Source: Symbiodinium sp. CCMP2592
Taxonomy: Eukaryota > Sar > Dinophyceae > Suessiales > Symbiodiniaceae
Length of the DNA: 64,000 nucleotides
Assembly (NCBI GenBank): GCA_905221615.1
Contig: CAJNDT010004569.1
Coordinates: forward strand, 1-64,000
Direction of reading: 5' to 3'
Numbering within the stretch: position 1 is the stretch's first letter; each line of letters begins with the position of its first letter. The notes under the pieces were generated by a model. That model ran no database searches, had not been told where the DNA came from, and saw only the letters and a program-made list of their open reading frames with translations. Below are positions 2,128 through 22,566 of this stretch, one piece after another. The translations under genes and the position numbers were made by a program.

Positions 2128-2206
2128 CCAATGACCTTTTGGACCCTGGCAGCTACCTCACAGCGACCCCACGCACACGTTGAGCCTTGAGCCAGAGGGC
2201 TCGGCT

Positions 2207-2500
2207 CGGGATTAGGGTTTAGGGTTCTTGGGTTTCAGGGTTTAGGAGTTTAGGAGTTTAGGGTATCGGGATTAGGGTTTAGGGTTCTTGGGTTTCAGGG
2301 TTTAGGATTTAGGGTTTAGGGTATCGGGATTAGGGTTTAGGGTTCTTGGGTTTCAGGGTTTAGGAGTTTAGGAGTTTAGGGTATCGGGATTAGGGTTTAG
2401 GGTTCTTGGGTTTCAGGGTTTAGGATTTGGGGTTTAGGGTATCGGGATTAGGGTTTAGGGTTCTTGGGTTTCAGGGTTTAGGATTTTGAAGGGTTTAGGG
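2207..2500. repeat. Telomere-like minisatellite, about five units of 58-60 bp
   Basis: Units begin TCGGGATTAGGGTTTAGGG and contain GGTTCTTGGGTTTC. They start near 2207, 2267, 2325, 2385 and 2443. They differ by GGAGTTTAGG versus GGATTTAGGG segments, giving two length variants that alternate. The array is built from degenerate TTTAGGG words but is a higher-order repeat, not a telomere. Confidence 0.85.
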
Positions 2501-2722: not shown

Positions 2723-3153
2723 TGCGTGGGGGATTGATCTCGACTAGGTTGCTGCTCTCCCCACCAGAGCTGTAATGAATGTAGGTGTGGCTGGCTTGCA
2801 CTCTCCTCAGACTGGACCCTGTCTCTCTTACACTTCCACGCGTGCAATCCTATGCAGGCAGAACCGGCGGCCGTTCCTTTTGCACTCACTGACGGCGGCG
2901 GTTCGTCTGTGCAACGGGATAGCTCTGATTGCTCAGGATAGAAGACACTTATAGCACTTAGCTATGGGCATTGACTTGAGCCAAACGTTGCGTGGGCGGT
3001 CACATAGAAAGGTAAAGATGAGGGACGCGTAGCGTGCCCCCTTAGAGTCGAGGGACGCGTAGCGTGCCCCCTTCGCTTGCACTTTACACGGTCTTGCTCA
3101 CAGCTCTTATAGTGACACCTTAGAACTTGACAAGGCATCGCAGTCCGTTCGCC
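2723..3153 (-). repeat. 3' LTR of the giant copia element
   Basis: Near-identical partner of 22136-22566. Differences read as T/A, G/A, A/C, G/T and C/T at single sites, plus the first base, which is G here and T in the other copy. It follows an unbroken run of eight G on the coding strand, as expected next to a polypurine tract. Confidence 0.93.
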
Positions 3154-3417: not shown

Positions 3418-4656
3418 TCATCTCCATCTTCGCGTGGTCGCAGGATCGCGGTCCCAGGGCCGGAGGTTTTCCTCTGGATACTGTTTCCTTTGCTTTCCTT
3501 TGTCCTTGCCTTTGTTTCGGCCTTTGCCGGCGGTGTAGTCATAGTAGGTGTTGGCGTTCCAGCCTCCATGCTGTTCACCTCCGGTTCTCTCACGCCCTTT
3601 TGAAGGTCCCTTGGCCGAAGAAGCGCTTGCACGTTCCTCCGTAGTGACAGGCGTGTCCAGGATGGAAGTACCACCCGGAGGGAGATAGTCAGCGGCCGAA
3701 ATGTGGTGTAGGGCTTCAGTACGCTTGGTCGTCGGGTTTTGCTGTCTCTCAGCCTTGGATCTGTTCAATCTGTCCATGAAATGAGCAGGCATTTGCACAT
3801 TGTGGTCCACCAGCAATCCGATGGTCTGGACTGAATGATCGGAATGAGTCAGCAGGATACCGACGGGGTCGATGTACAAGAAGTCAACCGGTCCAGTTGG
3901 TGTTGGTCGTAGCACTGAGAATTGTTGGTGTCCCGTCACCATCGGAATCACCTCGCACAGGACGTTCAGGCAACAAAAGTGCATAGCCTTCACATCTTCA
4001 TCCCTGTTGCTTTTCAAGTACGTAGTAGGGTTGAAGTTGTCCCTGCCAATTCCCATCATGTTGGCTCCCCGTGTAATCAACGAAAGCATCTGATTCGTCC
4101 GGAAGCGCTTCAAAGTGTAAGTCCCGTTGGGATCATACTGCTTGAAGTTCTCAGGTTCCTTGGCAAAGCGAATGATTTCCTCATCAGTCACATCCCTGCT
4201 CACACCAGTCTCTCTGTCCACTACAGCCAATGATCCCCATTTTCCAAGCACATCATAACGTTGGCCAAGCGCGAAATTCTCCTTCATCTGAAACAACGGC
4301 ATAGTAGCCCACTTCGCGAAGCCTGACCAAGCCTTGTAGATGGTCCTGCATACCACGAAAGCCATATACGAAAGAGCGACCATGTTGGCGTCAATGCAAT
4401 GGGCATTTCGCTTCCCTGAGTAGTAGGATGGCTGCATGGCGGTACGTGCAAGTTGTAGCTCAGGATCGATGTTCAAAGACTGGCCGGTAATGAAGACGGG
4501 ACGACGTTCCTGTGCGATTGCTTCTGGAACTGCGTCATCAAAGTCCTCCCCAGGCTCGATGTCCATTTCTTCATCAGGTTCCTGTTCTGGATCGTCTTCC
4601 GCGATGACAGATGGTTCTGGGATTTCTTCAGGTTCCGCAACGGTCTCTACCTCCAT
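3418..4656 (-). CDS. 412-codon ORF, 3' continuation of the accessory protein
   Basis: In the same frame as the 2079-codon ORF and separated from it by TAG at 4669-4671 plus four codons. The Glu/Pro-rich composition runs straight through the stop (APE, stop, EQEAMEVE), so the TAG looks like a point mutation or a readthrough site in one protein of about 2500 residues. The middle part (CIDANMVALSYMAFVV onward) is folded-looking but unrecognised. The tail is Gly/Lys/Arg-rich (GKGRNKGKDKGKQRKQ) and could bind nucleic acid. It ends 265 bp before the 3' LTR. Confidence 0.6.
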   Translation of the reverse strand: MEVETVAEPEEIPEPSVIAEDDPEQEPDEEMDIEPGEDFDDAVPEAIAQERRPVFITGQSLNIDPELQLARTAMQPSYYSGKRNAHCIDANMVALSYMAFVVCRTIYKAWSGFAKWATMPLFQMKENFALGQRYDVLGKWGSLAVVDRETGVSRDVTDEEIIRFAKEPENFKQYDPNGTYTLKRFRTNQMLSLITRGANMMGIGRDNFNPTTYLKSNRDEDVKAMHFCCLNVLCEVIPMVTGHQQFSVLRPTPTGPVDFLYIDPVGILLTHSDHSVQTIGLLVDHNVQMPAHFMDRLNRSKAERQQNPTTKRTEALHHISAADYLPPGGTSILDTPVTTEERASASSAKGPSKGRERTGGEQHGGWNANTYYDYTAGKGRNKGKDKGKQRKQYPEENLRPWDRDPATTRRWR

Positions 4657-4668
4657 GGCTTCCTGCTC

Positions 4669-7600
4669 CTATTCGGGCGCCTCAGGCACTGCGGCTGCTG
4701 CGGCTTCCATTGTCTGAGCAATGAAGTCACTGGGGATCTCCGTAGGAGTCTCCCGTTGTGGAGAACCGTGGTAATATCCGCTAGAAACGAACTGTGACCA
4801 GCAAGACGTGCATCGGGAGAAGCATGCTGGAACGATGTTGTAGCATGCCGGGCACACCCTCATTCTCCTTCCATCCTCGTCTCTGCGTAGGTCTTCGGGT
4901 CGCCAATTCTTGATGACAAACTTGATCCCTTTGTCAATGTAGTGATGCCGAACCGTGTTCTCCCTGTGGGACTCCAGGACAGTCGTAAGGTCTCGAATGA
5001 TCTGCTCCTTGCTGGTGTCGTGGGGTCCAGGAGGCATCTCGCAGAGCAATTCCATGATCTTGCTCGGCGTTCGGTATCTCTCGAACTCAGGGAGCAATGG
5101 TGATGCATTGTAGTCCAACACCAGCTCTTTCTCCAACCGTTCATCGTAGATCTTTTCCACCAGAGCGAAAGAGTGTGTATCTTGAGGATCCGGGACGCAA
5201 AACCATACCTCCTTGACGAACTGGCACGGTATCGTTCGGCCAACGATCATGATGCCGCTGTCTGTGATACGTCCATCTTCTCGTGCAAGGTCCTGCGATG
5301 GGACATGGAGGACCGCCAGTGGCATGTGCTTGGCATCTCGTCCATGCACCAGCATCTTGGTCGTCGCGTTCCGGTGATCGAACGGTGCAAACACCCCCCA
5401 ATAGCTGTGGAGTCTGCCGCCTTGGTTGCCTCGAAATTGGCGCCTGTGGTCGAAGTCCCCGTCGGGGTCCTCCGAACCAGGCATGATGCCTTGCGTGACA
5501 ATGGAATCCAAGTTGCGACATGCTGTGGCGTGGAACGCTCCTCCGAGACGTTGCAAGAGGGTCATGGATGGAGATATTGCGAACCTGTTCTTGTCCAACT
5601 GAAGCAAATTGTTCTGGGGATCCGAGTGTGCAGAGTGCCCACTTGTAGCCCGAACTGCCCATGGCTTCACCCAGCCGTTGCAAACGTTCAGGTACCTCTG
5701 GCTGTGCCGGCAATGATCATTGTTCTGGATCTCCGTGATCTGGTCAGGAACCGATACCAACATGTTCGAACCTGCTGATCCAAGAGGTTCCGTGCCGGGG
5801 TCCTTCACTCTCACTCCCAGGAACTGCAACCGAATCTTGGCCTTATGGCGTTTCGTGGCTGCGAGCATGTTCCCTTGGAACAATAGCTGAAGTCTTTCAT
5901 TGTACACTCTCTTCCTCTGTTGCTCATCGGTCCTTGAGACCGCTTCGGTGATGCGTCTGCTGTCATGGGTCCGTAGTTGCTCATGCCTCACCAAGTCCTC
6001 GATCAGCACCCACCCTCCTTCATCACATCGAATGACGCTGCTGAATGCCACCTGGCACCTGTTGTCAAGCCATTCCGAGCCTGGGCGCCTGGCGATTCTG
6101 TGGCGCAAGTCAGATTGGATGCATGATAGCGCCCAATCCGCGTTCAGTCTGCGCTGACGGGTGATGTTGCGAAGGACCACTTCGTTCACGAGGTCCCACC
6201 GATTGTTGATGAAGCTTGCACCCTTGGTTGGGATCAGGTCGAGAATCCCGCACCGGATTGGCCTTCCGCCGCCGATGCATTCATAGCCTGCATTGGTGTA
6301 GCCCTGAGTGGTATCGTCAAAAGCAAAGCTAGGACGGTCTCCTCGTTGAGGTAGGCGTCGGTCGCGATGGTCCGAAAGCTGCTCAATGAGGTCCACCACC
6401 CGCTTGCTATTCTCTGGTCCTGATTCCTGCAGTGGTACGCCACAAGCATCATGTAGGCCCCGACGGTTTTCCACATCCGTGCAGAGATTGTGCTTGTTCT
6501 CATAACGGATCAAGACCACATCACCCCGTACGGCTTCGCCTCCGCGTCGCGGTCGGGCTTTGGCCTTGGGTCGTCGGTCCGAGGATGCAACACTCACATG
6601 GTATGTGGTGTCAACGTCCATTGGCTCAGCCTCTTGTGGAGGTACTCGACGAGGATATCGAAGAAGGCTTTCCTTGATGATCTGGATGCCTCGAAGTACC
6701 AGATCCCGGGTTGCAGAATTTTCCGTGCAATTGGACAGAGTGTGTAGATCACTGCCACAAGCGATACAGAACGTGAGGCGGTCATTTCCGACCGACATTT
6801 CGCCCTGAGCGAGCACTCCCACATAGTCCTGAAGCTGTGCGACAAATCCTTCACGAATCGCCTGCCTGGGATCAGGGCCTTCTGCACCTTGTTCTTCTTC
6901 GGGTTGCGCATCCACATCTACATCCTGTGCAGGTATTGGTGGAGCAACGGAGAACCCTGGATAGTCCGTGACGTTGTCAGCGGCCTGTGTCTCGTCGGTT
7001 CTCGCAATCTCTACGGGGTAGATATCACCATCGACGATCACTGTGAAATCAATCACGAGGTCAGCGGACATGTTGTTGACGATCTCAGCGACTGCTTCAT
7101 TCTTCTTGGGCGGTGTCCTTTTGCGCGGGGAGTCAACCGTCATCAGCTCGATAGCTTCGGCCGACGCGTAGCGGAAGAATGATCTTTCGATTCCCCTCGC
7201 GCACGCATTTGCTCCCTCAAGGCCACCCCAATTCGGAAAATGACTTGGGTGTCTCATTGCAATTGTAAGAAGCCCGAGCGCCAGCTCCACCGTGTCACCC
7301 AGGAGTTCCTCCTTGGGCAAGGCTGACCCTCTGTAGCATTCTTGGCGCTCTTCCGGAGTCAAAAGCATTCTCATGAAACCAGCGTAAGCGCAGTTCCCGG
7401 CATCGTAGTAGCAGATGTAGCATGTCTTGCCTTCGGAATCGTATCCTCTGTCCCATGCCAACTGTTTGGCCTTTCCCCATGCCGCGTACTCGATGGCCTG
7501 ACTGGCTGTGATTCGGAGACCACCGTAGTGAGAAACCGTCTTGCCAATTTCTTCGTAGACCACTTCCGCACAAGCTTTGAGGAACTCCTTGATGTCCATG

Positions 7601-10600
7601 CGAGGGTCCACAAATTGAAGCCTCAGGTCATAAAGGTGCTTTGCGCAAGCCAAGGTGTACTTCTGGGACGCGACCAAGTCATTGAAGGAGCCGATTTGAT
7701 GCTGCATCTTCAAGTCTGAAGTATGCGCGCACCCAATGCAGTGTCCAGGATACCCGTTTCCAGTCGGCTTGAAGAAGGCCTGTGCGTAGCACTCAGCCAA
7801 CTTCATCGCGTCACATCCAGGGCAATAGAACGTTCTCCCTTTGACATAACCGGTGTTCGGGGTCGCATAGGTGTCGATCCGGAACCAGTAGTGCCTGTTG
7901 TCGTAGTAGGCTTCGGGAACGGTCATGGCGATGTCAAAATCCTGCCAGGTGACTGTGGACGATTCAGCGACCGTGTCACCCTGGGCACCCGACCTGATCT
8001 GTTGCTGCTGTTCTCCCGTAAACCATGTCTGCGAAATCCTGGTGGACGTCTTGACTTCACTCTTGTCCTCACAAATCTCGACAAGCGACGGGTGAGCGAC
8101 TGAGTCGGCGCGGACAGTTTCGTCCCATGAGCGAACTTTCGATGCCTCAACAAAGCACGTGGATACCATCTTCTCGCAGAACAGCTGCTTCTCGTAGATA
8201 GCGAAGACCAATTTGAACCTGACCCGATTGTCCGGTGCTGGCACCTTTTCGGCTGACAGTGTATGCACGCCTGACGACGCATGTTTCATCTGGCTGTACA
8301 TTCTTGACCAAAACGAAGATCCATGAATCACCACGCATGCTCGGGCCCGCAACTCCAGTTCAATGTACATTCCCAGCGCGTGGAAACCGTTGAACAGAGA
8401 AGCTTTGTGCTGAAGGTAATTGCTAGCTGCTCCAACCAACCGTAAGTCGTGATTGATGTTGACAATTGGAGGGCGCGTGGTACGCTTCCCTGCCGCAATG
8501 ATAGGGTCAACGTACGTGATCTTGAGCTGTCGCTGCAAGTCAGTGCGAATTGCTGCTCCGTCTCCAACCTCACTCATCGGAAAGGACATGTTCTCGATGA
8601 GGATCGCTTGGAGAGACAGATGGTAATGCAATGTGACGGTTGCAAGCTGCTCTTCAGTCACGCCATCCAATGTCGCATTCACAGATTCCAACGATCCTTT
8701 TGTGACTTGGAAGTTGTAGTTGGCACCTGCGGTGATCGACGGGCTCACAATGTAGACCTCGCTCCATCCATGCATGCCGAGGTTCTCTCTCACCGTGTGC
8801 GTTGATCCCCTGGTCCTTGCAACCATGTCAAAGTCCTGGACGAGGATTGTGCACTGAGAGCGCATAGTCGCGGCATCCGGTTTGCCACCCATGCCCAAAC
8901 TATTGCGAAATCCATTCAGCGTGTTCATGGTGTTGATCCTTGCTTCTTCCGGAATTTCATCATTGTCGACAAGATCGCTGTCTGCCTCGATCATCACTGC
9001 CGAGGTAAGCATTGGAGGAGAAGGAAGATGCACGCATGATACCAATGCCAATGCATGGTACAGCCGTGAATACATTCGTAACCACACCTTTGTACTCAGC
9101 TTCACGTAGACCTTCAGGTTGAGACCCTTGTCATCATTTTGAGAGACGGAACGGATCCTTGCCAAATAGGTCACCAGTCTTCTGACGTAATGCTGAATCG
9201 GTGTGGTCCCCACGTCGTTGTTGGCCACAAACTTTGGCGTCTCATCAATGGTAGGTGGGTACTCGTCTTGATCACGGGTCGTCGTCAGCAAGATCGAGCG
9301 ACAGCCCTTCTCATCGATGTTGACATAATGGTACCAACTTTCCTGAGCGCCAGCGGGGATTGGAGCTTCCTCCCACGTCGGTTGCGATGGTTCCTCTTCC
9401 GGTTGCGAAGGCGATTGTTGTGGAGGAGGTGCCGCAGAAGATGACGACGCCGATGCCGTTGCCTCGTCCGTCCTTGCCCTCTTTGGTCCGTGGCTAGGGG
9501 TGGCTCGAGGTCCGGCAGCGGATCCTTGCGATTGTTCCGGCGTTCTTCCATGCTCAGGGTGCACGATTCCTTCAGGTTCGAGGTTGCTTGCCGTAGGCAT
9601 CGCAACTCTCCCCGTTGAGTATACCCAGCTAGGATGCCGTTGAAGGTTGGGCGGAAATAGGCCATCATCTTGCATAAGCGGATTTGGTGCCCTCATCTGT
9701 TGGAATTCCGCTTCCCATATGCCCAATGTGGCGCGTTTGGTAGAGCAGTCGACCACGTACCCAGATTCAACTTCGCATTGATTCCAGGTGTAGCCACGGA
9801 ACGCATCCGGCAATTGGAAACCGTTCTTGTCCTGAGCTGCACATACGGCATCCACATGGTACTTGAGGAAAGCATACGTGGTGTAGTCGGAATCAGGGAG
9901 CACGTCGTTAGACCATCTGTAATGCGGGAGTCCAGTTTGTGGATCGACCCATGATACGTAGGAATGAAGCACGTGGAGACAGACACTGAACGCCTGGAGT
10001 GAGTTCATCGCAAAGGCGAGCGGATGTACCATGCCTTGAGGCAATGTGCGCATCATCAAAGCCAGCTGGTGGACGTTGATTGGCGTAGCGCCATCGTTGC
10101 TCGCTGCGCATTCCTGGTTGTAGGTCCGAAGTCCATACCCAGTGTGCTTTGCGAACATGTACATCAGCTTGCACACCCTACATAACGTAGGATCTCCCAA
10201 CAAGTCGGATTGGTCAGGTGCTCTGCCTGACATGGGCAACTTGTGGTAGTAGTCCTGATTCACCGTATACCATTGTTGAATTCTCGTGTCTGTCACGGCC
10301 TGGTAGGGCGTCTCCACGGAGTTGATGAGAACGGCGAGATTGTAGTACACGTCCGCGCTGACGATGTTCCTGGTTGCAGTGTTCAAGTCGAACCGAACTT
10401 GTTTTCTTTCTTGTTCCAGTTCAACCACAGCCAACTTTGCATCATCGCGGATCACTTCCTCATCCACCATAAATATTGTGATGGCATGAAACTTCCCTCC
10501 GTAGTCAGCAACAATGTGTTTGAGACCTCCACCAAACTTGATGACCATGGCGAGTATCTCCCCATAGGGCTTGTCCATGTACTCCTCCGGGGCAGCAAAT

Positions 10601-10908
10601 ATGCAAGCCTTGAGGATTTCTCGGACTCGAATGGAAAGATCCCCTCCTGGCGACAGATTTGCACACGTGAACAGCAAGACCAACGGAGGTGCTTTGAAGG
10701 CTGCCCATGTGCGAATGAGATCATTGTCGACCACTTTGTCTTTCGTAATCTTTGGCGGGAGCGAAACGCTCTGCGACGAATCCCCAGAATACATCTCTAG
10801 GAACTTGTGGAACTTCAGAAACGTTCGCATCATCCCACCAGACGGGAAAACCTCTTCGTGGTCCACTCCTTCGAAGGCCAGCTCGTAGGCATTGTAGCTT
10901 TCAGCCAT
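4669..10908 (-). CDS. 2079-codon accessory ORF with a Tpt1/KptA-like RNA 2'-phosphotransferase domain
   Basis: Starts with ATG at 10908, 112 bp after the previous ORF and in another frame. Residues 1-450 and 530-1500 have no fold I recognise; they include a Pro/Ser/Glu-rich linker (about 450-540) and Cys clusters (FYCPGCDAM, CHCIGCAHTS-like, CIACGSDLHTLSNC). Residues about 1590-1900 carry the landmarks of Tpt1/KptA in order: a helix with DLRHRI (LRH), GGWVLIEDLV, ITEAVSRTDEQQRKRV, AVRATSGHSAHS (family: IRAxQGHS), then AFHATACRNLDSIVTQGI (family: HGT...sIl..GL) and SGIMIVGR. Tpt1 removes a splice-junction 2'-phosphate from tRNA using NAD. A CPAC...CTSC zinc ribbon ends the protein. I saw no such gene described for a copia element. 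Confidence 0.75.
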   Translation of the reverse strand: MAESYNAYELAFEGVDHEEVFPSGGMMRTFLKFHKFLEMYSGDSSQSVSLPPKITKDKVVDNDLIRTWAAFKAPPLVLLFTCANLSPGGDLSIRVREILKACIFAAPEEYMDKPYGEILAMVIKFGGGLKHIVADYGGKFHAITIFMVDEEVIRDDAKLAVVELEQERKQVRFDLNTATRNIVSADVYYNLAVLINSVETPYQAVTDTRIQQWYTVNQDYYHKLPMSGRAPDQSDLLGDPTLCRVCKLMYMFAKHTGYGLRTYNQECAASNDGATPINVHQLALMMRTLPQGMVHPLAFAMNSLQAFSVCLHVLHSYVSWVDPQTGLPHYRWSNDVLPDSDYTTYAFLKYHVDAVCAAQDKNGFQLPDAFRGYTWNQCEVESGYVVDCSTKRATLGIWEAEFQQMRAPNPLMQDDGLFPPNLQRHPSWVYSTGRVAMPTASNLEPEGIVHPEHGRTPEQSQGSAAGPRATPSHGPKRARTDEATASASSSSAAPPPQQSPSQPEEEPSQPTWEEAPIPAGAQESWYHYVNIDEKGCRSILLTTTRDQDEYPPTIDETPKFVANNDVGTTPIQHYVRRLVTYLARIRSVSQNDDKGLNLKVYVKLSTKVWLRMYSRLYHALALVSCVHLPSPPMLTSAVMIEADSDLVDNDEIPEEARINTMNTLNGFRNSLGMGGKPDAATMRSQCTILVQDFDMVARTRGSTHTVRENLGMHGWSEVYIVSPSITAGANYNFQVTKGSLESVNATLDGVTEEQLATVTLHYHLSLQAILIENMSFPMSEVGDGAAIRTDLQRQLKITYVDPIIAAGKRTTRPPIVNINHDLRLVGAASNYLQHKASLFNGFHALGMYIELELRARACVVIHGSSFWSRMYSQMKHASSGVHTLSAEKVPAPDNRVRFKLVFAIYEKQLFCEKMVSTCFVEASKVRSWDETVRADSVAHPSLVEICEDKSEVKTSTRISQTWFTGEQQQQIRSGAQGDTVAESSTVTWQDFDIAMTVPEAYYDNRHYWFRIDTYATPNTGYVKGRTFYCPGCDAMKLAECYAQAFFKPTGNGYPGHCIGCAHTSDLKMQHQIGSFNDLVASQKYTLACAKHLYDLRLQFVDPRMDIKEFLKACAEVVYEEIGKTVSHYGGLRITASQAIEYAAWGKAKQLAWDRGYDSEGKTCYICYYDAGNCAYAGFMRMLLTPEERQECYRGSALPKEELLGDTVELALGLLTIAMRHPSHFPNWGGLEGANACARGIERSFFRYASAEAIELMTVDSPRKRTPPKKNEAVAEIVNNMSADLVIDFTVIVDGDIYPVEIARTDETQAADNVTDYPGFSVAPPIPAQDVDVDAQPEEEQGAEGPDPRQAIREGFVAQLQDYVGVLAQGEMSVGNDRLTFCIACGSDLHTLSNCTENSATRDLVLRGIQIIKESLLRYPRRVPPQEAEPMDVDTTYHVSVASSDRRPKAKARPRRGGEAVRGDVVLIRYENKHNLCTDVENRRGLHDACGVPLQESGPENSKRVVDLIEQLSDHRDRRLPQRGDRPSFAFDDTTQGYTNAGYECIGGGRPIRCGILDLIPTKGASFINNRWDLVNEVVLRNITRQRRLNADWALSCIQSDLRHRIARRPGSEWLDNRCQVAFSSVIRCDEGGWVLIEDLVRHEQLRTHDSRRITEAVSRTDEQQRKRVYNERLQLLFQGNMLAATKRHKAKIRLQFLGVRVKDPGTEPLGSAGSNMLVSVPDQITEIQNNDHCRHSQRYLNVCNGWVKPWAVRATSGHSAHSDPQNNLLQLDKNRFAISPSMTLLQRLGGAFHATACRNLDSIVTQGIMPGSEDPDGDFDHRRQFRGNQGGRLHSYWGVFAPFDHRNATTKMLVHGRDAKHMPLAVLHVPSQDLAREDGRITDSGIMIVGRTIPCQFVKEVWFCVPDPQDTHSFALVEKIYDERLEKELVLDYNASPLLPEFERYRTPSKIMELLCEMPPGPHDTSKEQIIRDLTTVLESHRENTVRHHYIDKGIKFVIKNWRPEDLRRDEDGRRMRVCPACYNIVPACFSRCTSCWSQFVSSGYYHGSPQRETPTEIPSDFIAQTMEAAAAAVPEAPE

Positions 10909-11020: not shown

Positions 11021-12337
11021 TTAGTTGTTTCTTAGTTGGGGCTGTCTAATAGCCCCTTCATCAGCGTCTACACACTGATGTTGCTGCCATGCAATGTCCT
11101 CAGATTCATGTGCAACATGACTGACACTGACATGAGCTCGAACAAGGCTGCGAACATTCCCCGCAATTGACCGCCATGAGACATCAATGCGCTGCGACAA
11201 ACTGCTCTTCGAATCATGGTCCAAGCAATCATCCGGTCTCACCATCAAACGATCCGCTTCAGGCATGTTAGAGAACATGATCCTGCGTCCACCACCATCG
11301 CCACCAGCACCAACATGATCATCAACCTTAACCTTCGTCACCTTGCCACTTGAAACAAGAGCAGGCAACTCTGGCCAAGACCAACATGAACATGAAGAAG
11401 GCATGTCAAGCGAAAAATAGACGTCGGAAAATTCCGCACACTTCTTCAGCAGGCGTTTGAGAGATTTCAAGACACTTCTGAAAACCTTGTACTTCCCACC
11501 GGAACGTTTCTCACCCCCCACGCAAGCCCCTTCACTACTTCCAGGACCAGCACCTGACCGCAAAAGCGATGCCACGAATAGCACAGGTGTGCGCAGGTCA
11601 TTCCGGCACGCATCCTTCATCGCACCGATAAGGCTGTCCTCATCGGCCGTAGAGCCAATCAGCTCCTTGCAAGTTATGCGAGCGCATCCCTTAGTGGACT
11701 TAGGCACGGCGTAGCCATTGCCCAAGCCACATAGGTCAACGATCATGCGGTCAGGCTTTCGTCCACCAGCCTTCGACGGCATGGCTACCAATCTCCCATC
11801 GCCCGTTGCCTGAAATTTCAAGGCTTTAAGCAATCTCCTGGAGATTTGGCTAGTCAACTCGCATTTATCAGATCGATCCTTAGCGTCCGAATAGGTCATG
11901 TGCAAATGTTTGGACGAGCACACGTCAGACGACTTAGGATGCAACGCGACGTTTGCGGCAATGTACTCCCATTCATCCTTGCAGTAGCCGAGCTCGACGG
12001 CGGTTCCGGGAGATACAGGATCCCGAAAGGTATAACGTTGCCCGTGAGTGCATCCTTGGATCTTGATGCTCTTCCACATGGCATCTTCCTGAAGTCCATT
12101 GTACTGCTTGGTTTCCTGGACTGGTACTCGAGGAGGCACTTCGATGATGATTTGGAACCCCCATGATGCCGCTCTGCGCGCAATTCTTTGGACGACCTCC
12201 CCCCATGGGTAGTCTGTCCGCAATTTGGCCCTTTCAGGGTTGTCAGCGATTTTCCGACTCAGCCACGAATTCTTGCCTAACACCCCTGCACCAATGAAGA
12301 TCACGGAGTTAGGGTTGATTTTCCTTGCTTCCACCAC
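11021..12337 (-). CDS. Accessory ORF after RNase H, unknown function
   Basis: About 438 codons, in the same frame as the RNase H ORF and separated from it by one TAA and four codons (LFDV). The only nearby start is GTG. The two were most likely one protein of about 1090 residues. Visible landmarks: VIFIGAGVLG near the start; a Cys/His segment (GCTHGQRY, then a Cys, then KHLHMTY); a basic stretch; a Ser/Cys-rich part (SSCSCWSW). The Cys/His segment recalls a domain I associate with other dinoflagellate retroelement proteins, but I cannot name it. Codons look like the rest of the element. Confidence 0.6.
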   Translation of the reverse strand: MVEARKINPNSVIFIGAGVLGKNSWLSRKIADNPERAKLRTDYPWGEVVQRIARRAASWGFQIIIEVPPRVPVQETKQYNGLQEDAMWKSIKIQGCTHGQRYTFRDPVSPGTAVELGYCKDEWEYIAANVALHPKSSDVCSSKHLHMTYSDAKDRSDKCELTSQISRRLLKALKFQATGDGRLVAMPSKAGGRKPDRMIVDLCGLGNGYAVPKSTKGCARITCKELIGSTADEDSLIGAMKDACRNDLRTPVLFVASLLRSGAGPGSSEGACVGGEKRSGGKYKVFRSVLKSLKRLLKKCAEFSDVYFSLDMPSSCSCWSWPELPALVSSGKVTKVKVDDHVGAGGDGGGRRIMFSNMPEADRLMVRPDDCLDHDSKSSLSQRIDVSWRSIAGNVRSLVRAHVSVSHVAHESEDIAWQQHQCVDADEGAIRQPQLRNN

Positions 12338-12346
12338 ATCGAAGAG

Positions 12347-14303
12347 TTAGGCGCACATGGCGTCGTCAACTTCTCGCCCCATACTCAGAACATTTACTTG
12401 CAGCCCAGGGTCATAGTGAGAATCGGGAGCATGCTGTGCAATGCAATCCTTGCCTGGAGCATACTCATTACACCAGTTCTCCTCATCGACCCCTACCAAT
12501 GTCCACACCGTCACTGCTTTTGGAGCATCTTTGATAGTGATACGGTACTTCCACCGGCTGTAAGGATTCTTGTAGGTATGGACCAACCCTCCATCGTGGT
12601 CGAGGAATTGGATCACCAGGCCCTCCTTGGGTTTGTTTTCGGTGAAATTGACCACGTGAGGCACAATTGCTCCATTGTATCCTTGATATTCCCTTTTCTG
12701 TTCAGCCGCATCATGCCATACATCCTCGTACACTGACGACCAGTGGTCATAACCGAATTGAGAGGCTTGACTTTTGGACTGTCCGTTGAAACAAAGAGGC
12801 AATGTAAAGCCCTGGTACCCCCCATGGATGGCACGCGCCAGTGTGACAACCACCGCTCGCCATTTGGCGGGCAGGGCGCGCACATAAGACTGGCGCAAAG
12901 GCGGTTCAGGAGGAGGCAAAAACGGCGGCGCAAGGACGTCCGCAATAGCTGCGGGGCGCAAATGCCCCCGTACCGGATGGTACTGAAACACAGCACGCTC
13001 CACATAGCGGTCGAACTTGCCCGGTTGATCAAGGATAGCAGCACGGTCCTCCATCTGGTGCCACTGCCCTTCACGAAGAATCCCAGTCGACCGAAGGTAA
13101 CGACCAGGCGGCAACGCGGAAGGCGGCCCCCGCAACATGCGCGGGAACTTGACAACCAGGATGGGGTCCACACTGTCATGTTCTTGCAAGCCTTCCTTAC
13201 TCGACAATCCAGCGCGATACAACACCTGAGGGAGGATCGGCGTCTGCGTGTAAGGAAAACAAGGCACCTTGCTCTTGAACGAGTAATGCTGTTGCCCCTT
13301 CTCATCCGTACTTTGGGTATGAGTAGGGCGCATCAGATCCATAATCTCTTGGGAGCCAATGAGAGCCGGCGGAAAAATGTTGATGAGCTGACACGCATGT
13401 GTCCAGGACACAGAATCCTTGAAAGACTTGGTGTGGATGTCCGCGGACATCTTGGCAGTGACCTCATAGGCAAGAGAAACGTAACCTTCCTGAAAGATAG
13501 AATGCATCCAACCAATGCAGATGCCGTGGGTACGTTCCAAGTGACGCATAGTCGGATTCTTGCCCGTGCGAATCACCCCGATCATGGTCTGGTTGTCGTC
13601 GTAAAAGACGAAGTTGGGGTCTTGCCCCCCAAGCTGCTGCCACAACGTGATAGCAGGCAATCCAAGACGTGACATGGCAACGTCGGCCGCGACAATCTCG
13701 GCCTCAGGTGTGGAATGACTCAAGCACCCCTGCCTTTTGCTAAGTCCCGCCAAGGGAAATCTTGTGTGAGAACCTTGAATGTGCAAATGAGCACCGGAGG
13801 TCGATTTCAAACTTTCTCCACAACCTGCATAGTCCGCATCTGCAAACAGCCCGATGGACGAGTCCTCCAAGGAGTTCCCAACCCATCCAATCATCATGTG
13901 ATGTTTGGACTGGTGCACATAGGCCATGAGATGATGAAGAAGAGCATCCTCCTTCTTGGTCCATTTCGTGATCTTGCGTGCGAGATTGTTGATACTGCGC
14001 AGAAGATCGAAGCGGCAAATGCGCGCGGCATAAAGCAACTTCATGAGAATGCTTGCTGCCTGCGGAGCAAGTGCGCCGCGATTAGCCTCGTTGATCTCCT
14101 CTTCCTCTGGCGCCTTGGGAATAGGTGGAGGCGGAACAAGCCGACCGTCCTTATCAACAGGCATGGTGTGTCCACACCACGTGCATCGATGGCTTTTACC
14201 TGACTGTGCCGGAGCGCGAGCTGGGTGATTCTTAGTCTCCTCAGCCGGACTCGGCGATGGTACCGTCTTGAAGTTTGTCGGATCGAACCCAGTCACGTCG
14301 CCA
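12347..14303 (-). CDS. RNase H domain of the copia element with a long unknown C-terminal tail
   Basis: This frame opens just after the poly(A) tract, so it has no proper start of its own; it is the separated 3' end of Pol. After a Cys/His pair (CTWCGH) comes a copia RNase H: GLFADADYAGCGES, LSHSTPEAEIVAAD and FVFYDDNQTMIG supply the acidic residues, followed by the usual ADIHTKSF. About 330 further residues have no family I recognise. TAA at 12347-12349 ends it, but the next ORF continues in the same frame four codons later. Confidence 0.85.
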
Positions 14304-17400: not shown

Positions 17401-18735
17401 ACTTCTTCTATAGGAGGTTCTTGGGGTTCAGGATCAGGAGGCCGTTCATGATCGTCACCTTCTTCTTCTGCTTCAACCTCGCTCGGTGCAGCTTCAGCGG
17501 CAGCTGCGACACTGACGTCAACGTCACCTGCGGTTAGCACACTCTTGAAGATTTCGGTGATCGCTTTGGCCTCCGGATCATCATGAACAAGTGACTTGGA
17601 ACTCCCGGCACGAATGTACGGGATGTCACCGTTCACGAACAGAGATATCCTCTTGCCCTGCGGGTTGATCATGAATGGTTCCCTTCCGGGTGGCCACACA
17701 AACCCGTAGTTGAAGTTCATACATCTCTTGCCTATGGAAAGCACCGATGGTGTGTCGTCCAACACGTAAGCGTTGATCGGTTCCTCGAACGACTCAGTCT
17801 GGAAATTCGACACGAGATCGGTATCGGTGATTCCATTTGCTGTCTGAAATGATATGGGCTCTGGAGTCACGAGTGTCTCAAGACTATGCTTCTCGATCTT
17901 CTTCTGAGATATGAGGTCATGGCCACACCCAGTGTCCATGAGAAACTTGATCTTCTTCTTGAGGATGACTGGTTGAACCATGCATTTGCATACACCTTGA
18001 TTGATGATCCGCTTGCTGTGCGCAGCATCGAGTTCACGCTCAACGATGGAATCCTCACCGTCGTAGAAGGAGACTTCCTCCACCCGAGACGTTCCTGGGA
18101 TTCGCACGAATGAAACTCGATCTCCACATTGATCATCATCGTCGTCAACCATGTCTCTCATAATCTGTGCCCTCAATCTCGCTTTGTGCTTGGCGAATTC
18201 CAAATTCACGGCGCGATCCTCATCGTTAACAAGCGCTTCCATGTCGACGTACTTCACCTTCCGCTCTTTGTCCTTCTTCGATCTTCTAGGACACGAAGAA
18301 ATGAACTTCACGTCATCGGCGAATGTCACATTACGCTTGATCTCTTTTCGGGTCGACGTAGTCGGTCCCGAGGATTCGTCGTCTGTTGAACAATCCGAAT
18401 CAGCGTCGCTGTCAACGGATGGACAATCTGACTCCTCCTCATCTTGTCTTGAAGATCGCTTCCATATCGCCGGAGCTGATGGATTCCACCTTCGGCACAA
18501 TCTGATGGCGGGTGCCGCAGGGAGCGCCTTGGCCTTGGCATTCGGCTTCGCTGGAGCTGCCTTCGCTTCGGATTTGGCTTTAGCCTTTGCCTTTGGTTCC
18601 GGAGCTGGGGTAGCTGCTGCCTCATGCTTGAAAGGACAATTCTCTCTTGAACACGAGCCTGTGTTCTTGAACGAGTAGCATATCCTGTTTCCTCCTCCTC
18701 CAGATGGACTTGGAGTTCTCGTCCTCGGCGTAAAA
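14460..18735 (-). CDS. Pol: aspartic protease, integrase and reverse transcriptase
   Basis: The open frame extends back to 19121, but sense sequence begins near 18735, where Gag leaves off. Order: a second CCCH finger (CYSFKNTGSC, 18621-18690); protease with FLMDTGCGHDL near 17935; integrase with an HHCC finger (HLCTHRYRNPYCESC, near 17200), then the DDE core TFDFLDM, YSDEAPEF and NSLAERSN; then RT with VCRLIKALYGHPDAG and the catalytic YVDD at 14664-14675. It makes and inserts element DNA. The frame stops with TAA exactly where the poly(A) tract begins, so RNase H is cut off. Confidence 0.9.
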
Positions 18736-21700
18736 GGGTCGCTCTGGAGTCTTCTTCGAGTGACTGAATGGGCACTTGTCACCATTTCGACACCCTGCAT
18801 CTGTGAAATGGAACTTGCAGCGGATTTGCTTCTTGCTCTTGTCACCTCTGTTGTCCGCTGACTCACTCCTCGTCTTCTTCTTGGGTTTTGGCTTGGTTTT
18901 CGCATGACTCTTCGCTTTGCTTTGAGGTAGTACAGGTGTTGCTTTATCCGGCTTGGTCGGCGAAGCCTTGACCTTTGCGGATGGAGCTGCGTTAGGCGTT
19001 GGTTTCTCAGGTACCTTGGCCGGTGCAGCAAGCAAATCCTTGCCCTCAAGCATCTGGCGCAAGCCAATTTGGGTCTGAGTGAGATTTGATTGTTCTCGTC
19101 TCCGCATGATGGTACGGTCAATGATCTTCATCAAATTGTCGTACGATCGGTCTTCATGATTGTAGGGCAAGTGTTCGTAGTGCATGCCCAACTCCATCTT
19201 CATTGCGGGCGAGTCCTTGATCTTGCTGTACAAGCAATCACGGAGAGCTGTTTTGGATGGTATGTCTTCTGGCCTCATCCGTCCCAGAACTTCCAACCAC
19301 GTCTGCTTGAACGTATGAAGCTTGTTGTCGCCTTGGTACTGGAGCTTCACCAGATACTCGAGAGTGATGATCATGTCGAGACGATCATGCGTTCGAAAGC
19401 TTTCATACATCATCGCAATGATTTGTCGTCCTTTGATGATCTTCCCTTCGGGCCTGCTGATGTAATCGTTGGCCTTCCGGTTCACCTCCAGGTACAGGTC
19501 AGCAGATTTGTCACCACCAGCACGTAGCATTGCGACCATTGCGATCCCCAATTTGACGTCTACGCTCTTAAACTTCTTGTGTCCTGAATCGTTCAGTGCT
19601 TCGACATCAGGGAATGGGTTGAATGCTGGTGCCAGCCATAACATCCAGTCCTCATGATTTGGATCGGCTGATGCTCCTAAGACATTCGCCGTGCATACGG
19701 ATCGCCAGTTGTTGAGGTGAGTGAGAGTAGGCCATGGAGGTACGGTCACTTTGTCGGCCTCCCTCCTGGAAATTCTCACTTCCGTGACTTCAGGATCTGC
19801 GTCTCCATCAGGATCACGCGCATGAGATCCAGGATCCGATTCAGGTTTGCCTCCACCGCTTTTCTTCTTATCATCATCATCATCAGGCGGGTCAGGAGGG
19901 TCATACCCCGTGCCGGTTCCTTCATCGTGCTCTCCATCTTCGTTCTCGTCGCCAGCCTCGTCACCGTCATCGTCTCCATTATCCTCCTGAATCGTTTCAG
20001 CGAATAATCTCCACTCATCACGATCAGCTCTGAGACGTTGTTCGGCTTTCTGGGCCTTGAGTACTTCGCTTCGCAGATCGGCAATCTTCTCCTCGTACCG
20101 TTCCGCGACCTCTTTCTCGATCTGACGTCTCCTTGCTTCATGAATGGAATCGTCATAGGCAATAGGGGGACCGATGAGGTCGTTGCCCTTCGTAGATGCG
20201 GTGATACCGTCGACACCAACAGGTCTTGAGGAGCTGGCAGATGCTGTGGACTTCGATCCCAACATCCCGCGATCCTCCAAGAGTTCGCGTAGCTGTCGAT
20301 CACGCACGGCTGCCGCATCACTTTTCCCATGAAATCCGCTTGGTATGCCGAACAAAGTGGCTGCACTAGGCGTGGAACGCGCAAGTGCTGGGCTGCTAAT
20401 ACCTGGCACGTAGTGCTCGGGCATTGCATCCGCCACGATTGGCATTGAATTGCGGCCAGTGAAGAAGTTTCCACCGGTGAATGGAATTCCATCCATCACA
20501 AGGTTCTTGTCCTTGTCCGATTCCGAGAATGCGAACTTCTCTTTGGCGACTGGACTAACTTGACTCGGGGACCGTATTTCAGGGGATCGTACCTCACCTC
20601 CTACGGAAAATGCAGGCACTACTTCCTTTCCTACGTGCTCCCAGCCAGACTCAGTAGTCCTCGAAGACATGGGCATGCTTGAAGGCCGTGTCGCTCCTCC
20701 ATAGTTGGAGTTCCGCGCTGCCTCCAATTCGCTGCGTGTCCTCGCTTGAAGATCTTCTTGTGCTTTGAGCGTTTTCCTGAGTTCACTCAGCTCGTCGTGC
20801 AAGGTAGGCAATGATCGCCTTGCATGATCTTCATTCTGATGAAGACGGTCCTCTGCATCTTGCATCCTCTTCACAGCCATTTTGCGGTACTCTTCTTCTT
20901 CGCCAAGACGTTCGCGAAGCCGAAATCGTTCTTGATCAATGGCTGCGCTGTTTCCAGCTAGCCCTTGGATCTCGTTCACGGCCCGCAACTCCTGGTTCTT
21001 GACCAAGTGGAATCGTTCCTGCATTGCTTGTAAGGCTTGTTCCGAACTTGCTGTGTTTGACCGGAGGACCAAGTTCTCTCTGGCATGTTCATGAAGTTCA
21101 TGAGTCAGACGCTCATACTCACGTGCCATAAGCTCACCATCGCCTTGCGCTCTTGCCTCCAACTGCACAAAGTTAGTGGCTGCCTCCGTGCGGAACACGT
21201 GTAGCTGTTGAGCTAACTCCTCGGCAACGGCATGTGCTTGACGTTGTTGAGCAGAGTTCTGTTCATCCATGCGAAACAAAGCTGTTTCATAGTCTCGCTT
21301 CATCTCCTGATTGACATTGTTGATGTGCCTCATGGCTAAGCATGCATGGTCACGTTGTCGTTCCAATTCTTCAATGCGAATTCCAGATCCTTCATCTTCT
21401 TGCTGCATCTCCTTGATCTTGTCCATCAGGGTCTGAACAACTCCTTCGTACTCTTGCATCTGACTGCGATAGTACATCTGCTGCGCAAGGTTAGATGCTT
21501 CGAGCTGTTGCGAGATCGTCAGTTCCTGATAGGCATTCGGACCATCGGCTATGGCTGGCGTGGTCACCGATGACGCATCACCACGTGCTGGGATAGTGTC
21601 CAGAGTCATATCCAGATCGTCAGCATCACGTGGTTGATTGGTAACCATCCGATTCCAAGTCATGGATTTGTCACGCCCACGAGTAGCCGAAGTCCTCGAT

Positions 21701-22071
21701 CGTGCCGAAGAGCTTCTCGAAGATGATGGTCTTGATTTCTTTTCCAAGGTCTTCACTCCTTTGTCCTTGGCCCTGGACGTAGTCCGAGGTGCCTGAAAAC
21801 CAGACGCTTCGGCTCGTCGTTCGGGAGCCTTGCCCGTCCTCGAACCTGTGGATGTCGGACGCGAAGGCGTAGATGCTCTTGGTAGACTCTTTGCTTTCAC
21901 CTTGGGAACTGCCTTTGCAATGGCAAGCGCAGAAGATTGACCTTTGTCATCTTCCGTGGAGCTATCAACGGATTGCACCACTGTGTCATCAGCTGTTGAC
22001 TCACCAACGGCTGGCGCTGCCACATCGGCACCGAAAGTCATTGTCGTATCTTGGCTTGATCCCGAGTTCAT
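18622..22071 (-). CDS. Gag-like protein with long coiled coil, copia Gag domain and CCCH finger
   Basis: 1149 codons from ATG at 22071, about 60 bp inside the 5' LTR. Residues 1-160 are Ser/Thr/Ala-rich. Residues about 170-460 are Q/E/L/R-rich and strongly coiled-coil. Residues about 770-1010 look like the Gag domain of copia elements, with the block WPTLTHLNNWRS followed by helical segments ending near MLEGKDLL. A basic stretch then leads to a CCCH zinc finger, C-x8-C-x5-C-x3-H (CKFHFTDAGC), near 18780-18830. Most copia Gags use a CCHC knuckle instead. The last 30 codons are probably out of frame: the sense reading moves to the next frame near 18735. Confidence 0.85.
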   Translation of the reverse strand: MNSGSSQDTTMTFGADVAAPAVGESTADDTVVQSVDSSTEDDKGQSSALAIAKAVPKVKAKSLPRASTPSRPTSTGSRTGKAPERRAEASGFQAPRTTSRAKDKGVKTLEKKSRPSSSRSSSARSRTSATRGRDKSMTWNRMVTNQPRDADDLDMTLDTIPARGDASSVTTPAIADGPNAYQELTISQQLEASNLAQQMYYRSQMQEYEGVVQTLMDKIKEMQQEDEGSGIRIEELERQRDHACLAMRHINNVNQEMKRDYETALFRMDEQNSAQQRQAHAVAEELAQQLHVFRTEAATNFVQLEARAQGDGELMAREYERLTHELHEHARENLVLRSNTASSEQALQAMQERFHLVKNQELRAVNEIQGLAGNSAAIDQERFRLRERLGEEEEYRKMAVKRMQDAEDRLHQNEDHARRSLPTLHDELSELRKTLKAQEDLQARTRSELEAARNSNYGGATRPSSMPMSSRTTESGWEHVGKEVVPAFSVGGEVRSPEIRSPSQVSPVAKEKFAFSESDKDKNLVMDGIPFTGGNFFTGRNSMPIVADAMPEHYVPGISSPALARSTPSAATLFGIPSGFHGKSDAAAVRDRQLRELLEDRGMLGSKSTASASSSRPVGVDGITASTKGNDLIGPPIAYDDSIHEARRRQIEKEVAERYEEKIADLRSEVLKAQKAEQRLRADRDEWRLFAETIQEDNGDDDGDEAGDENEDGEHDEGTGTGYDPPDPPDDDDDKKKSGGGKPESDPGSHARDPDGDADPEVTEVRISRREADKVTVPPWPTLTHLNNWRSVCTANVLGASADPNHEDWMLWLAPAFNPFPDVEALNDSGHKKFKSVDVKLGIAMVAMLRAGGDKSADLYLEVNRKANDYISRPEGKIIKGRQIIAMMYESFRTHDRLDMIITLEYLVKLQYQGDNKLHTFKQTWLEVLGRMRPEDIPSKTALRDCLYSKIKDSPAMKMELGMHYEHLPYNHEDRSYDNLMKIIDRTIMRRREQSNLTQTQIGLRQMLEGKDLLAAPAKVPEKPTPNAAPSAKVKASPTKPDKATPVLPQSKAKSHAKTKPKPKKKTRSESADNRGDKSKKQIRCKFHFTDAGCRNGDKCPFSHSKKTPERPFYAEDENSKSIWRRRKQDMLLVQEHRLVFKRELSFQA
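18685..18780 (-). other. Gag-Pol frame change between two CCCH fingers
   Basis: The first CCCH finger is in the Gag frame and the second, about 35 residues on, is in the frame one base later. The likely switch is at 18729-18738, where the coding strand reads CCCTTTTACG: the Gag frame gives RPFYAED and the Pol frame gives DPFTPRT, and the Pol frame then keeps a Ser/Pro/Gly linker. A plus-one shift would join them. It could be programmed frameshifting or a simple indel. Confidence 0.55.
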
Positions 22072-22109: not shown

Positions 22110-22135
22110 GGCAGAGCCGCGTACGGCTGATAACC
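22110..22135 (-). promoter_or_regulatory. Presumed primer-binding region after the 5' LTR
   Basis: Directly after ...CGCA the coding strand reads GGTTATCAGCCGTACGCGG. GGTTATCAG is close to the TGGTATCAG found in many plant copia elements that use initiator Met tRNA, but it is not a clean match. A small hairpin (AGCCG-TACG-CGGCT) overlaps it. The tRNA is therefore undecided. Confidence 0.3.
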
Positions 22136-22566
22136 TGCGTGGGGGATTGATCTCGACTAGGTTGCTGCTCTCCCCACCAGAGCTGTAATGAATGTAGGTG
22201 TGGCTGGCTTGCACTCTCCACAGACTGGACCCTGTCTCTCTTACACTTCCACACGTGCAATCCTATGCAGGCAGAACCGGCGGCCGTTCCTTTTGCACTC
22301 ACTGCCGGCGGCGGTTCGTCTGTGCAACGGGATAGCTCTGATTGCTCAGGATAGAAGACACTTATAGCACTTAGCTATGGGCATTGACTTGAGCCAAACG
22401 TTGCGTGGGCGGTCACATAGAAAGGTAAAGATGAGGGACGCGTAGCGTGCCCCCTTAGAGTCGAGGGACGCGTAGCGTGCCCCCTTCTCTTGCACTTTAC
22501 ACGGTCTTGTTCACAGCTCTTATAGTGACACCTTAGAACTTGACAAGGCATCGCAGTCCGTTCGCA
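22136..22566 (-). repeat. 5' LTR of the giant copia element
   Basis: It matches 2723-3153 base for base except for five internal substitutions and the boundary base. On the coding strand it begins TGCGAACGGAC and ends CCACGCA, giving TG...CA termini. It holds a direct repeat of a 24-bp unit starting GAGGGACGCGTAGCG, copies six bases apart, each with a small hairpin ACGC-GTA-GCGT. It should contain the element promoter and RNA start. Confidence 0.93.
22388..22398 (-). promoter_or_regulatory. Spliced-leader-like 11-mer in the LTR
   Basis: On the coding strand the LTR contains TTTGGCTCAAG, identical to the last 11 bases of the dinoflagellate spliced leader. The other LTR has the same word at 2975-2985. 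Retroposed dinoflagellate sequences often keep leader remnants, so this could mark a past trans-spliced RNA 5' end. An 11-base match can occur by chance in 64 kb (a few percent). Confidence 0.35.

What the first reader, a model, noticed from the sequence alone, without database searches (positions are those of the whole stretch)
4669..10908. A copia retrotransposon that carries a Tpt1/KptA-like RNA 2'-phosphotransferase domain
Residues about 1590-1900 of the 2079-codon ORF show LRH, GGWVLIEDLV, AVRATSGHS and AFHATACRNLDSIVTQGI in the order and spacing of Tpt1/KptA, an NAD-using enzyme that removes the 2'-phosphate left by tRNA splicing. Seen: motifs and position inside LTR bounds. Known: the family and its reaction. 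Inferred: a role for the element, for example acting on a 2'-phosphorylated tRNA primer, on host RNA repair, or as an ADP-ribosyltransferase. I know of no described copia element with this cargo.
Basis: partly seen in the sequence, partly recalled or inferred. Interest (0 to 1): 0.88.

Follow-up and report, generated by a model that had tools for sequence, protein, structure and literature searches.

The report
Retrotransposon carrying an RNA-repair enzyme domain
A large, apparently young jumping gene of a coral-symbiont alga carries its own version of an enzyme normally used to clean up spliced RNA, and two other, unrelated kinds of jumping genes in the same genome carry such an enzyme too, which suggests that these elements may need RNA repair to copy themselves.

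Summary
The 2079-codon ORF (4669-10908, minus strand) lies inside a 19.8 kb copia-type element (LTRs 425/430 identical), after pol. Residues about 1586-1922 are a diverged Tpt1/KptA domain: Pfam PTS_2-RNA just over its cut-off, profile-profile probability 98%, and the 15 best structural matches are Tpt1/KptA over both lobes. It is not one accident: 81 of 81 scored places (window included; 1297 candidates) keep the region without a stop, LTR-anchored copies give pN/pS 0.31, and relatives at 25-75% identity exist, two beside copia RT or RNase H-like sequence. Beyond the finding: two kinds of non-LTR element in the same genome carry better-conserved KptA, one fused upstream of the endonuclease, one in an ORF after RT. 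KptA thus looks like a recurrent cargo of Symbiodinium retroelements. Most likely it removes RT-blocking 2'-phosphates from element RNA; activity is inferred. Three of four catalytic Tpt1 residues are invariant in 8 of 8 rows; the fourth is uncertain. The tRNA-primer idea is weakened. No listing in my paper searches shows this cargo.

The parts
22136..22565 (-). 5' LTR (element lies on the minus strand); boundary may extend by 1 base to give TG...CA
   Evidence: 425/430 identical to 2723-3152; ends seen
22119..22135 (-). putative primer-binding site, directly after the 5' LTR; begins GGTTAT
   Evidence: same sequence in 3 of 3 copies read (window, L017, L016); tRNA not assigned
18622..22071 (-). 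gag-like ORF, 1149 aa, CCCH zinc finger (below cut-off) at the C-terminus
   Evidence: 99.8% identical over residues 1-1113 in copy L017
14460..19121 (-). pol ORF, 1553 aa: aspartic protease (weak), integrase (weak), SH3-like (weak), RVT_2 reverse transcriptase
   Evidence: RVT_2 E 4.5e-8, 33.4 bits over cut-off 31.6; the others below their cut-offs
12347..14296 (-). ORF of 649 aa continuing pol: RNase H-like motifs (by eye; no credible Pfam match)
   Evidence: similar stretch follows RT in P0007 (by eye)
11021..12337 (-). ORF of 438 aa, no family match, between the RNase H-like part and the KptA ORF
   Evidence: 96% identical in copy L018
4669..10908 (-). accessory ORF, 2079 aa in this copy, holding the KptA domain
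   Evidence: 98.0% identical over all 2079 residues, no stop, in copy L018
5143..6153 (-). Tpt1/KptA domain, residues about 1586-1922 (RNA lobe with a long insert, then NAD lobe)
3418..4656 (-). 412-aa remainder of the same accessory ORF, same frame, separated by a stop in this copy
   Evidence: 2509-codon open frames at 21 of 81 places; P0003
3153..3162 (-). G-run before the 3' LTR, likely polypurine tract
   Evidence: G-run before the 3' LTR in 3 of 3 copies (window; L018 and L015)
2723..3152 (-). 3' LTR
   Evidence: 40 of 40 scored genomic matches at 99-100%, this LTR itself included; 1309 candidates

Best explanation
This is a giant Ty1/copia-type LTR retrotransposon of Symbiodinium whose accessory polyprotein, encoded after pol where some LTR elements have extra ORFs, contains a Tpt1/KptA-type NAD+-dependent RNA 2'-phosphotransferase. 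SHOWN here: the domain, its two-lobe fold (as a model), its place inside the LTRs, its retention in many copies and in relatives, and the separate presence of KptA in LINE-type elements of the same genome. INFERRED: the domain is catalytically active and works for the element's own replication. The likeliest step is this: element RNA that has been cut (host defence or stress endonucleases leave 2',3'-cyclic phosphates) and rejoined or healed carries 2'-phosphates; the element's KptA moves them to NAD+ (giving ADP-ribose cyclic phosphate), leaving an RNA that reverse transcriptase can copy. This one role would serve both LTR and LINE elements, whereas primer processing would serve only the former. 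Rough odds: Tpt1-fold domain integral to the element 0.97; enzymatically active on RNA phosphates 0.65; template or genomic-RNA repair as the main role 0.35.
For: Domain. Catalytic residues: the Arg-His pair (LRH), the VRA Arg and the His and Thr of the HAT motif are invariant in 8 of 8 rows of A1 (P0008 was left out of A1 as truncated), and the motif blocks are identical in 30 of 30 copies read, window included. The Arg-His-Arg-Arg tetrad as essential for Tpt1: passages of PMC6333775. Integral to the element: 81 of 81 scored places with no stop in the 530-codon region; of 8 sites picked by LTR, 7 hold at least part of the domain, 4 of them without a frame break or deletion. Constraint: pN/pS 0.31 pooled over 21 pairs of the window and six LTR-picked copies; 0.087 for 29 copies picked by protein score (biased low); 0.18 for residues 1586-1910 in the window/L018 pair. 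Relatives: 8 proteins; P0007 has RVT_2 in the same gene model and P0008 the RNase H-like part (by eye). Recurrence: LINE elements with KptA. Precedent for KptA inside RNA-virus polyproteins, with RNA repair proposed: passages of PMC9503650.
Against: No enzymatic test. The fourth tetrad Arg (HGR in the window and in 30 of 30 copies read) is not conserved in relatives: R in P0005, P0006, P0010; P in P0003; missing in P0004; unclear in P0007; P0008 and P0009 end before it. No RNA ligase, 2H phosphodiesterase, kinase or macro domain was found beside it, so repair would rely on host enzymes; whether this host has a ligase that leaves 2'-phosphates is not known (uninformative, RtcB search did not complete). 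The model is of middling quality (pLDDT 61). In the pairs the RNase H-like part (0.12) and gag (0.025) are more constrained than the domain (0.18), pol less (0.36, aligned with gaps). The six LTR-picked copies were taken from sites not in the list, and one of them (L053) has no KptA at that place.
Confidence: 0.6

Rival explanations
1. Primer maturation: reverse transcription starts from a tRNA half cut in the anticodon arm, as recalled for Drosophila copia; the cut leaves a 2'/3' phosphate and KptA frees the 3' end.
For: The putative PBS starts GGTTAT and 9 of 11 positions match an initiator-type tRNA of this genome in the recalled copia register; 22 of 100,000 letter shuffles do so in that register, 931 of 100,000 anywhere in the tRNA. 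[quoted passage not shown] not read).
Against: A PBS is recopied from its primer (general knowledge), so 2 of 11 mismatches argue against this tRNA. The answered search for the exact sequence in tRNA context gave 2 matches, neither tRNA-like by eye; variants with an intron, an initiator-type T loop or a 3'-end fit did not complete. LINE elements carry KptA without needing a tRNA primer.
Confidence: 0.12
2. Host conflict by ADP-ribosylation: the domain marks 5'-phosphates of RNA or DNA (or a host protein) with ADP-ribose, protecting element nucleic acid or blocking a host factor.
For: 5'-phosphate ADP-ribosylation by Tpt1 enzymes is described (passages of PMC9458441). In the LINE-A element read, KptA follows a weak PARP-like match (E 2.3e-4, below cut-off), and the element also encodes a UCH-type peptidase (E 5.2e-8).
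Against: The RNA-lobe residues that hold the 2'-phosphate are conserved, which fits RNA 2'-phosphate chemistry best. No macro or Nudix partner was seen.
Confidence: 0.2
3. Structural use only: a KptA-fold RNA-binding module of the particle or RNP without catalysis.
For: Diverged sequence, long insert, fourth Arg not conserved, GHS changed to GQS in P0006 and P0008.
Against: LRH, VRA and HAT invariant in 8 of 8 rows. The LINE KptA domains are closer to canonical enzymes (E 1.3e-39 and 2.2e-41).
Confidence: 0.15
4. Captured host gene, carried as a passenger without use to the element.
For: A separate KptA locus that looks like a host gene exon exists (L002/L020; by eye).
Against: Many copies with the same cargo, lowered pN/pS, relatives at 25-75% identity; copia KptA rows form one clade apart from LINE, fungal, mammalian and host-like rows on an unrooted tree with long branches (100/100).
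Confidence: 0.03

Closest known systems
Tpt1/KptA RNA 2'-phosphotransferase (Pfam PF01885)
   Same: Two-lobe fold; LRH, GGWV, VRAxSGHS and H(A/G)T motifs in order
   Different: Part of a retrotransposon polyprotein; long insert between the motifs of the RNA lobe; Lys before the VRA Arg replaced (alignment); fourth Arg not conserved; far below NCBIfam equivalog cut-offs
DNA-methyltransferase-bearing retrotransposons of Symbiodinium (de Mendoza 2018, PMC5890265; passages read)
   Same: Dinoflagellate retroelements with a captured enzyme under purifying selection
   Different: Other enzyme, in LINE and DIRS elements; the paper says that Copia lacks any DNMT domain; the word phosphotransferase does not occur in its main text
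KptA domains in polyproteins of a picorna-like virus and a nidovirus (Iyer 2022, PMC9503650; passages read)
   Same: KptA inside a polyprotein of an RNA-copying agent; RNA repair proposed
   Different: RNA viruses, not retroelements; words beginning retrotranspos, retroelement or dinoflagellate do not occur in that text
Additional ORFs of LTR retrotransposons, such as the env-like ORF of Sireviruses (recalled)
   Same: Extra coding sequence between pol and the 3' LTR of a copia element
   Different: About 9 kb long and with an identified enzyme domain
LINE elements A and B of the same genome (this work)
   Same: Retroelements with a KptA domain
   Different: Non-LTR elements; KptA much closer to canonical enzymes; in B fused upstream of the endonuclease, in A in an ORF after RT

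Membership tests
Tpt1/KptA | Match to the PTS_2-RNA profile above its gathering score | tested here: met
   28.3 bits against 26; 7 of 8 A1 segments match at E<=1; whole relatives mostly below threshold
Tpt1/KptA | Two-lobe fold: winged-helix RNA lobe plus ART NAD lobe | tested here: met
Tpt1/KptA | Arg-His of the first tetrad pair and Arg of the third position | tested here: met
   invariant in 8 of 8 rows; identical in 30 of 30 copies; roles from PMC6333775 passages
Tpt1/KptA | Fourth tetrad Arg (SGMR in canonical enzymes) | tested here: inconclusive
   HGR in the window; R in P0005, P0006, P0010; P in P0003; absent P0004; unclear P0007
Tpt1/KptA | NAD+-dependent removal of an RNA 2'-phosphate | not testable with these tools
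   needs an enzyme assay
Ty1/copia LTR retrotransposon | LTRs with TG...CA ends and target-site duplication | tested here: met
   LTRs 425/430; TG...CA ends in copies L016-L018 and the window's 5' LTR, first T replaced in the window's 3' LTR; 5-bp TTTTT duplication in the C1158 copy, none seen at the window copy
Ty1/copia LTR retrotransposon | RVT_2 reverse transcriptase, integrase before RT | tested here: met
   RVT_2 over cut-off at residues 1427-1525; integrase-type matches at 751-881 weak, below cut-off
copia half-tRNA priming (recalled) | PBS complementary to the anticodon arm of initiator tRNA | tested here: inconclusive
   9 of 11, two mismatches; exact sequence not found in tRNA context
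DNMT-retrotransposons of dinoflagellates | Cytosine methyltransferase domain | tested here: not met
   no such Pfam match in the six element ORFs scanned

The most novel reading that the evidence does not exclude
Retroelements of two unrelated classes in dinoflagellates have repeatedly captured RNA 2'-phosphotransferases (copia, LINE-A and LINE-B, at different positions in the element) because their hosts attack or religate element RNA in a way that leaves 2'-phosphates that block reverse transcription: an NAD+-dependent RNA-repair arms race fought by retrotransposons.
Probability: 0.3. Interest if true: 0.92.

Novelty: new variant of a known kind. Interest (0 to 1): 0.75.

Why it matters
[quoted passage not shown] Finding it as selected cargo of high-copy retroelements points to 2'-phosphates, or terminal RNA phosphates, as something that a retroelement must deal with, and makes that testable. 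It also suggests that some gene models named TRPT1/Trpt1 in Symbiodinium records are transposon proteins, which matters for studies of gene-family expansion.

Tried and rejected
Rejected: chance motif match; single-copy accident or assembly chimera; simple passenger. Weakened: tRNA-half primer. I expected an isoleucine-type or initiator tRNA to fit the PBS exactly; none of those found did. Led nowhere: PDB phmmer of the single sequence (0 at E<=1); whole-ORF profile against PDB (3 weak matches, all ZCCHC8, E 0.18-0.6); viral contigs (30 pattern matches, none a relative); Pfam over the 9 rows of A2 for partner enzymes (none credible beside KptA and RT; only 3 of 9 rows match KptA there at E<=0.5); T4-type RNA ligase family in the genome (0, but its controls rang nowhere, so uninformative). 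Papers: ten searches counted; seven bore on KptA or retroelements of dinoflagellates, and no title or abstract start listed shows KptA/Tpt1 in a retrotransposon; one search was too broad to be informative, and the papers that held all terms were not opened. Subscription papers are mostly not held.

Rows dropped: P0008 from A1 and from the tree (truncated in the NAD lobe). The tree used 17 of the 31 proteins P0011-P0041. L015 (deletion) and L053 (no KptA; perhaps beside a 5' LTR) are in the count of 8 LTR-picked sites but not in pN/pS; L052 and L054 entered pN/pS only with their in-frame parts (405 and 520 codons). Two of the 8 sites (C155, C1158) were picked as LTR pairs about 19 kb apart, the other six from LTR hits not in the list. 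The 29 copies were chosen by protein similarity, so that ratio is biased low. One search read 14 of 30 copies on the wrong strand and was discarded.
Full report
Observation. The ORF at 4669-10908 on the minus strand is 2079 codons long and lies within an element bounded by LTRs at 2723-3152 and 22136-22565, 425/430 identical, with TG...CA ends in two further copies read and in the window's 5' LTR; in the window's 3' LTR the first T is replaced. Reading along the minus strand the element holds a gag-like ORF with a weak CCCH finger, a pol ORF with a weak aspartic protease, weak integrase-type matches and an RVT_2 reverse transcriptase over its cut-off, an ORF with RNase H-like motifs (by eye, no credible Pfam match), a 438-aa ORF, the 2079-aa ORF and its 412-aa continuation in the same frame. 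The window copy is interrupted there by a stop; 21 of 81 places have open frames of 2509 codons, and relative P0003 is 2490 aa. The window copy shows no target-site duplication; the copy on contig C1158 has a 5-bp TTTTT duplication.

Active site. [quoted passage not shown] LRH and the VRA Arg, plus the His and Thr of the HAT motif, are invariant in 8 of 8 rows and unchanged in 30 of 30 copies read, window included. The fourth Arg is R in the window (HGR), P0005, P0006 and P0010, but P in P0003, absent in P0004 and unclear in P0007. The Lys that in canonical enzymes stands two residues before the Arg of VRA is replaced (the paper says that it is not essential in the Runella enzyme). So activity is likely, not shown.

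Is it part of the element? The same 530-residue region occurs at 81 of 81 scored places, the window's own included (1297 first-look candidates, so a lower bound), 97-98% identical outside the window, no stops inside. The LTR is found at 40 of 40 scored places, the window's 3' LTR included (1309 candidates). Of eight sites chosen by LTR and not by KptA, four hold the domain uninterrupted, two have a frame break, one a deletion and one lacks it. pN/pS is 0.31 pooled over 21 pairs of the window and six LTR-picked copies, 0.087 for 29 copies chosen by protein similarity (biased low) and 0.148 for the window against those 29. In single pairs the domain stands at 0.18, against the RNase H-like part 0.12, gag 0.025, pol 0.36 (aligned with gaps), ORF 11021-12337 0.67. 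Homologues at 25-75% identity over the domain occur in 8 proteins of the database. P0007 (Symbiodinium sp. KB8) has RVT_2 in the same gene model and P0008 (same strain) the RNase H-like part (by eye), so the copia association holds in another Symbiodinium strain.

Beyond the finding. PF01885 gives 152 matches in this genome (150 of 1550 candidates scored); all listed ones are over the cut-off and none of them is the window element, whose score is lower. Many listed rows lie in open frames of 663-667 codons, and 78 of the listed rows score 134.2-134.3 bits. Two such loci were read in context (L009/L010, L011/L012): the KptA ORF follows a non-LTR element with a weak endonuclease match, RVT_1 (E 4.1e-22), weak zinc-finger matches and a UCH-type peptidase, then a 299-aa ORF (family A). 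A second kind has KptA fused upstream of the endonuclease: shown by Pfam for L013, with like sequence in L004, L007 and L019 and, by eye, in L003, L005, L006 and L008; P0032 (2131 aa, Symbiodinium sp. CCMP2592) carries KptA, endonuclease and RT in one protein by its precomputed Pfam domains. P0035 and P0034 lie on contigs of 542874 and 233398 bases, the lengths of C4962 and C353 here, so G000 is most likely that strain's genome. Relatives of the family-A ORF occur in other Symbiodinium records, some under the name TRPT1. In an unrooted tree of 30 rows the copia KptA rows form one clade (100/100), family A another (98/95), family B a weaker one (78/99), apart from fungal, mammalian and host-like rows. 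Long branches meet, so the number of captures is not proven, but three different positions in elements of two classes make more than one capture likely.

Mechanism. A tRNA-primer role was the tempting idea, as the PBS begins GGTTAT as I recall for Drosophila copia, which primes from a half tRNA. The initiator-type tRNA found (L058) matches 9 of 11 in that register, which few shuffles reach (22 of 100,000); but a PBS should copy its primer exactly, and the exact sequence in tRNA context was not found (other variants unanswered). Since LINEs do not use tRNA primers (general knowledge), a role on the element RNA itself, or against a host response, explains more. I favour removal of 2'-phosphates from cut and religated or healed element RNA; a like role was proposed for RNA-virus KptA domains (PMC9503650 passages). 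ADP-ribosylation of 5'-phosphate ends (PMC9458441 passages) is the main rival. No repair partner was found in the element.

Novelty. Captured enzymes in dinoflagellate retroelements are known for DNMTs (PMC5890265, passages), which the paper says Copia lacks. KptA in retroelements was not in the listings. Word checks: phosphotransferase does not occur in PMC5890265; neither it nor KptA occurs in PMC8045281 or PMC11453091; retroelement words do not occur in PMC9503650. I rate it a new variant of a known kind.

Noticed in passing
L009:7702-9663 and L010:917-5504 (minus strands): LINE family A: RT ORF with weak zinc-finger matches and a UCH-type peptidase, then a 299-aa ORF, then a 653-aa ORF with a weak PARP-like match and a clear KptA domain; 78 listed genomic KptA rows have almost the same score.
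   Followed up: partly
L013:6260-9973 (minus); P0032: LINE family B: KptA fused upstream of the endonuclease, in P0032 also with RT in one 2131-aa protein.
   Followed up: partly
P0015, P0023, P0024, P0033: These KptA proteins are named TRPT1/Trpt1 or tRNA 2'-phosphotransferase 1 in public Symbiodinium records; if they are transposon proteins they could inflate counts of a host gene family.
   Followed up: no
window 11021-12337 (-): 438-aa ORF between the RNase H-like part and the KptA ORF; similar stretches in the same order in P0007 and P0008 (by eye); no family match; pN/pS 0.67 in one pair.
   Followed up: partly
window 2206-2499; 30256 and 38014: 118-bp tandem-type repeat next to the 3' LTR, with 67% alike copies elsewhere in the window.
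   Followed up: no
G000:C5051:1089490-1089600 (L057): tRNA-Met gene that looks bacterial or organellar rather than nuclear initiator type (by eye), on a 2.96 Mb contig; possible contaminant or transfer.
   Followed up: no
P0036-P0040: Monosporascus fungal proteins of 1442-1544 aa with a KptA domain, in P0036 near the C-terminus behind a long low-complexity region; not known whether gene-model fusions.
   Followed up: no
L014:2016-6155 (+): Another RT plus UCH-type peptidase protein (1379 aa) beside a family B copy, related to the family A RT at about 26% identity: a deubiquitinase-like domain also recurs in these LINEs.
   Followed up: no
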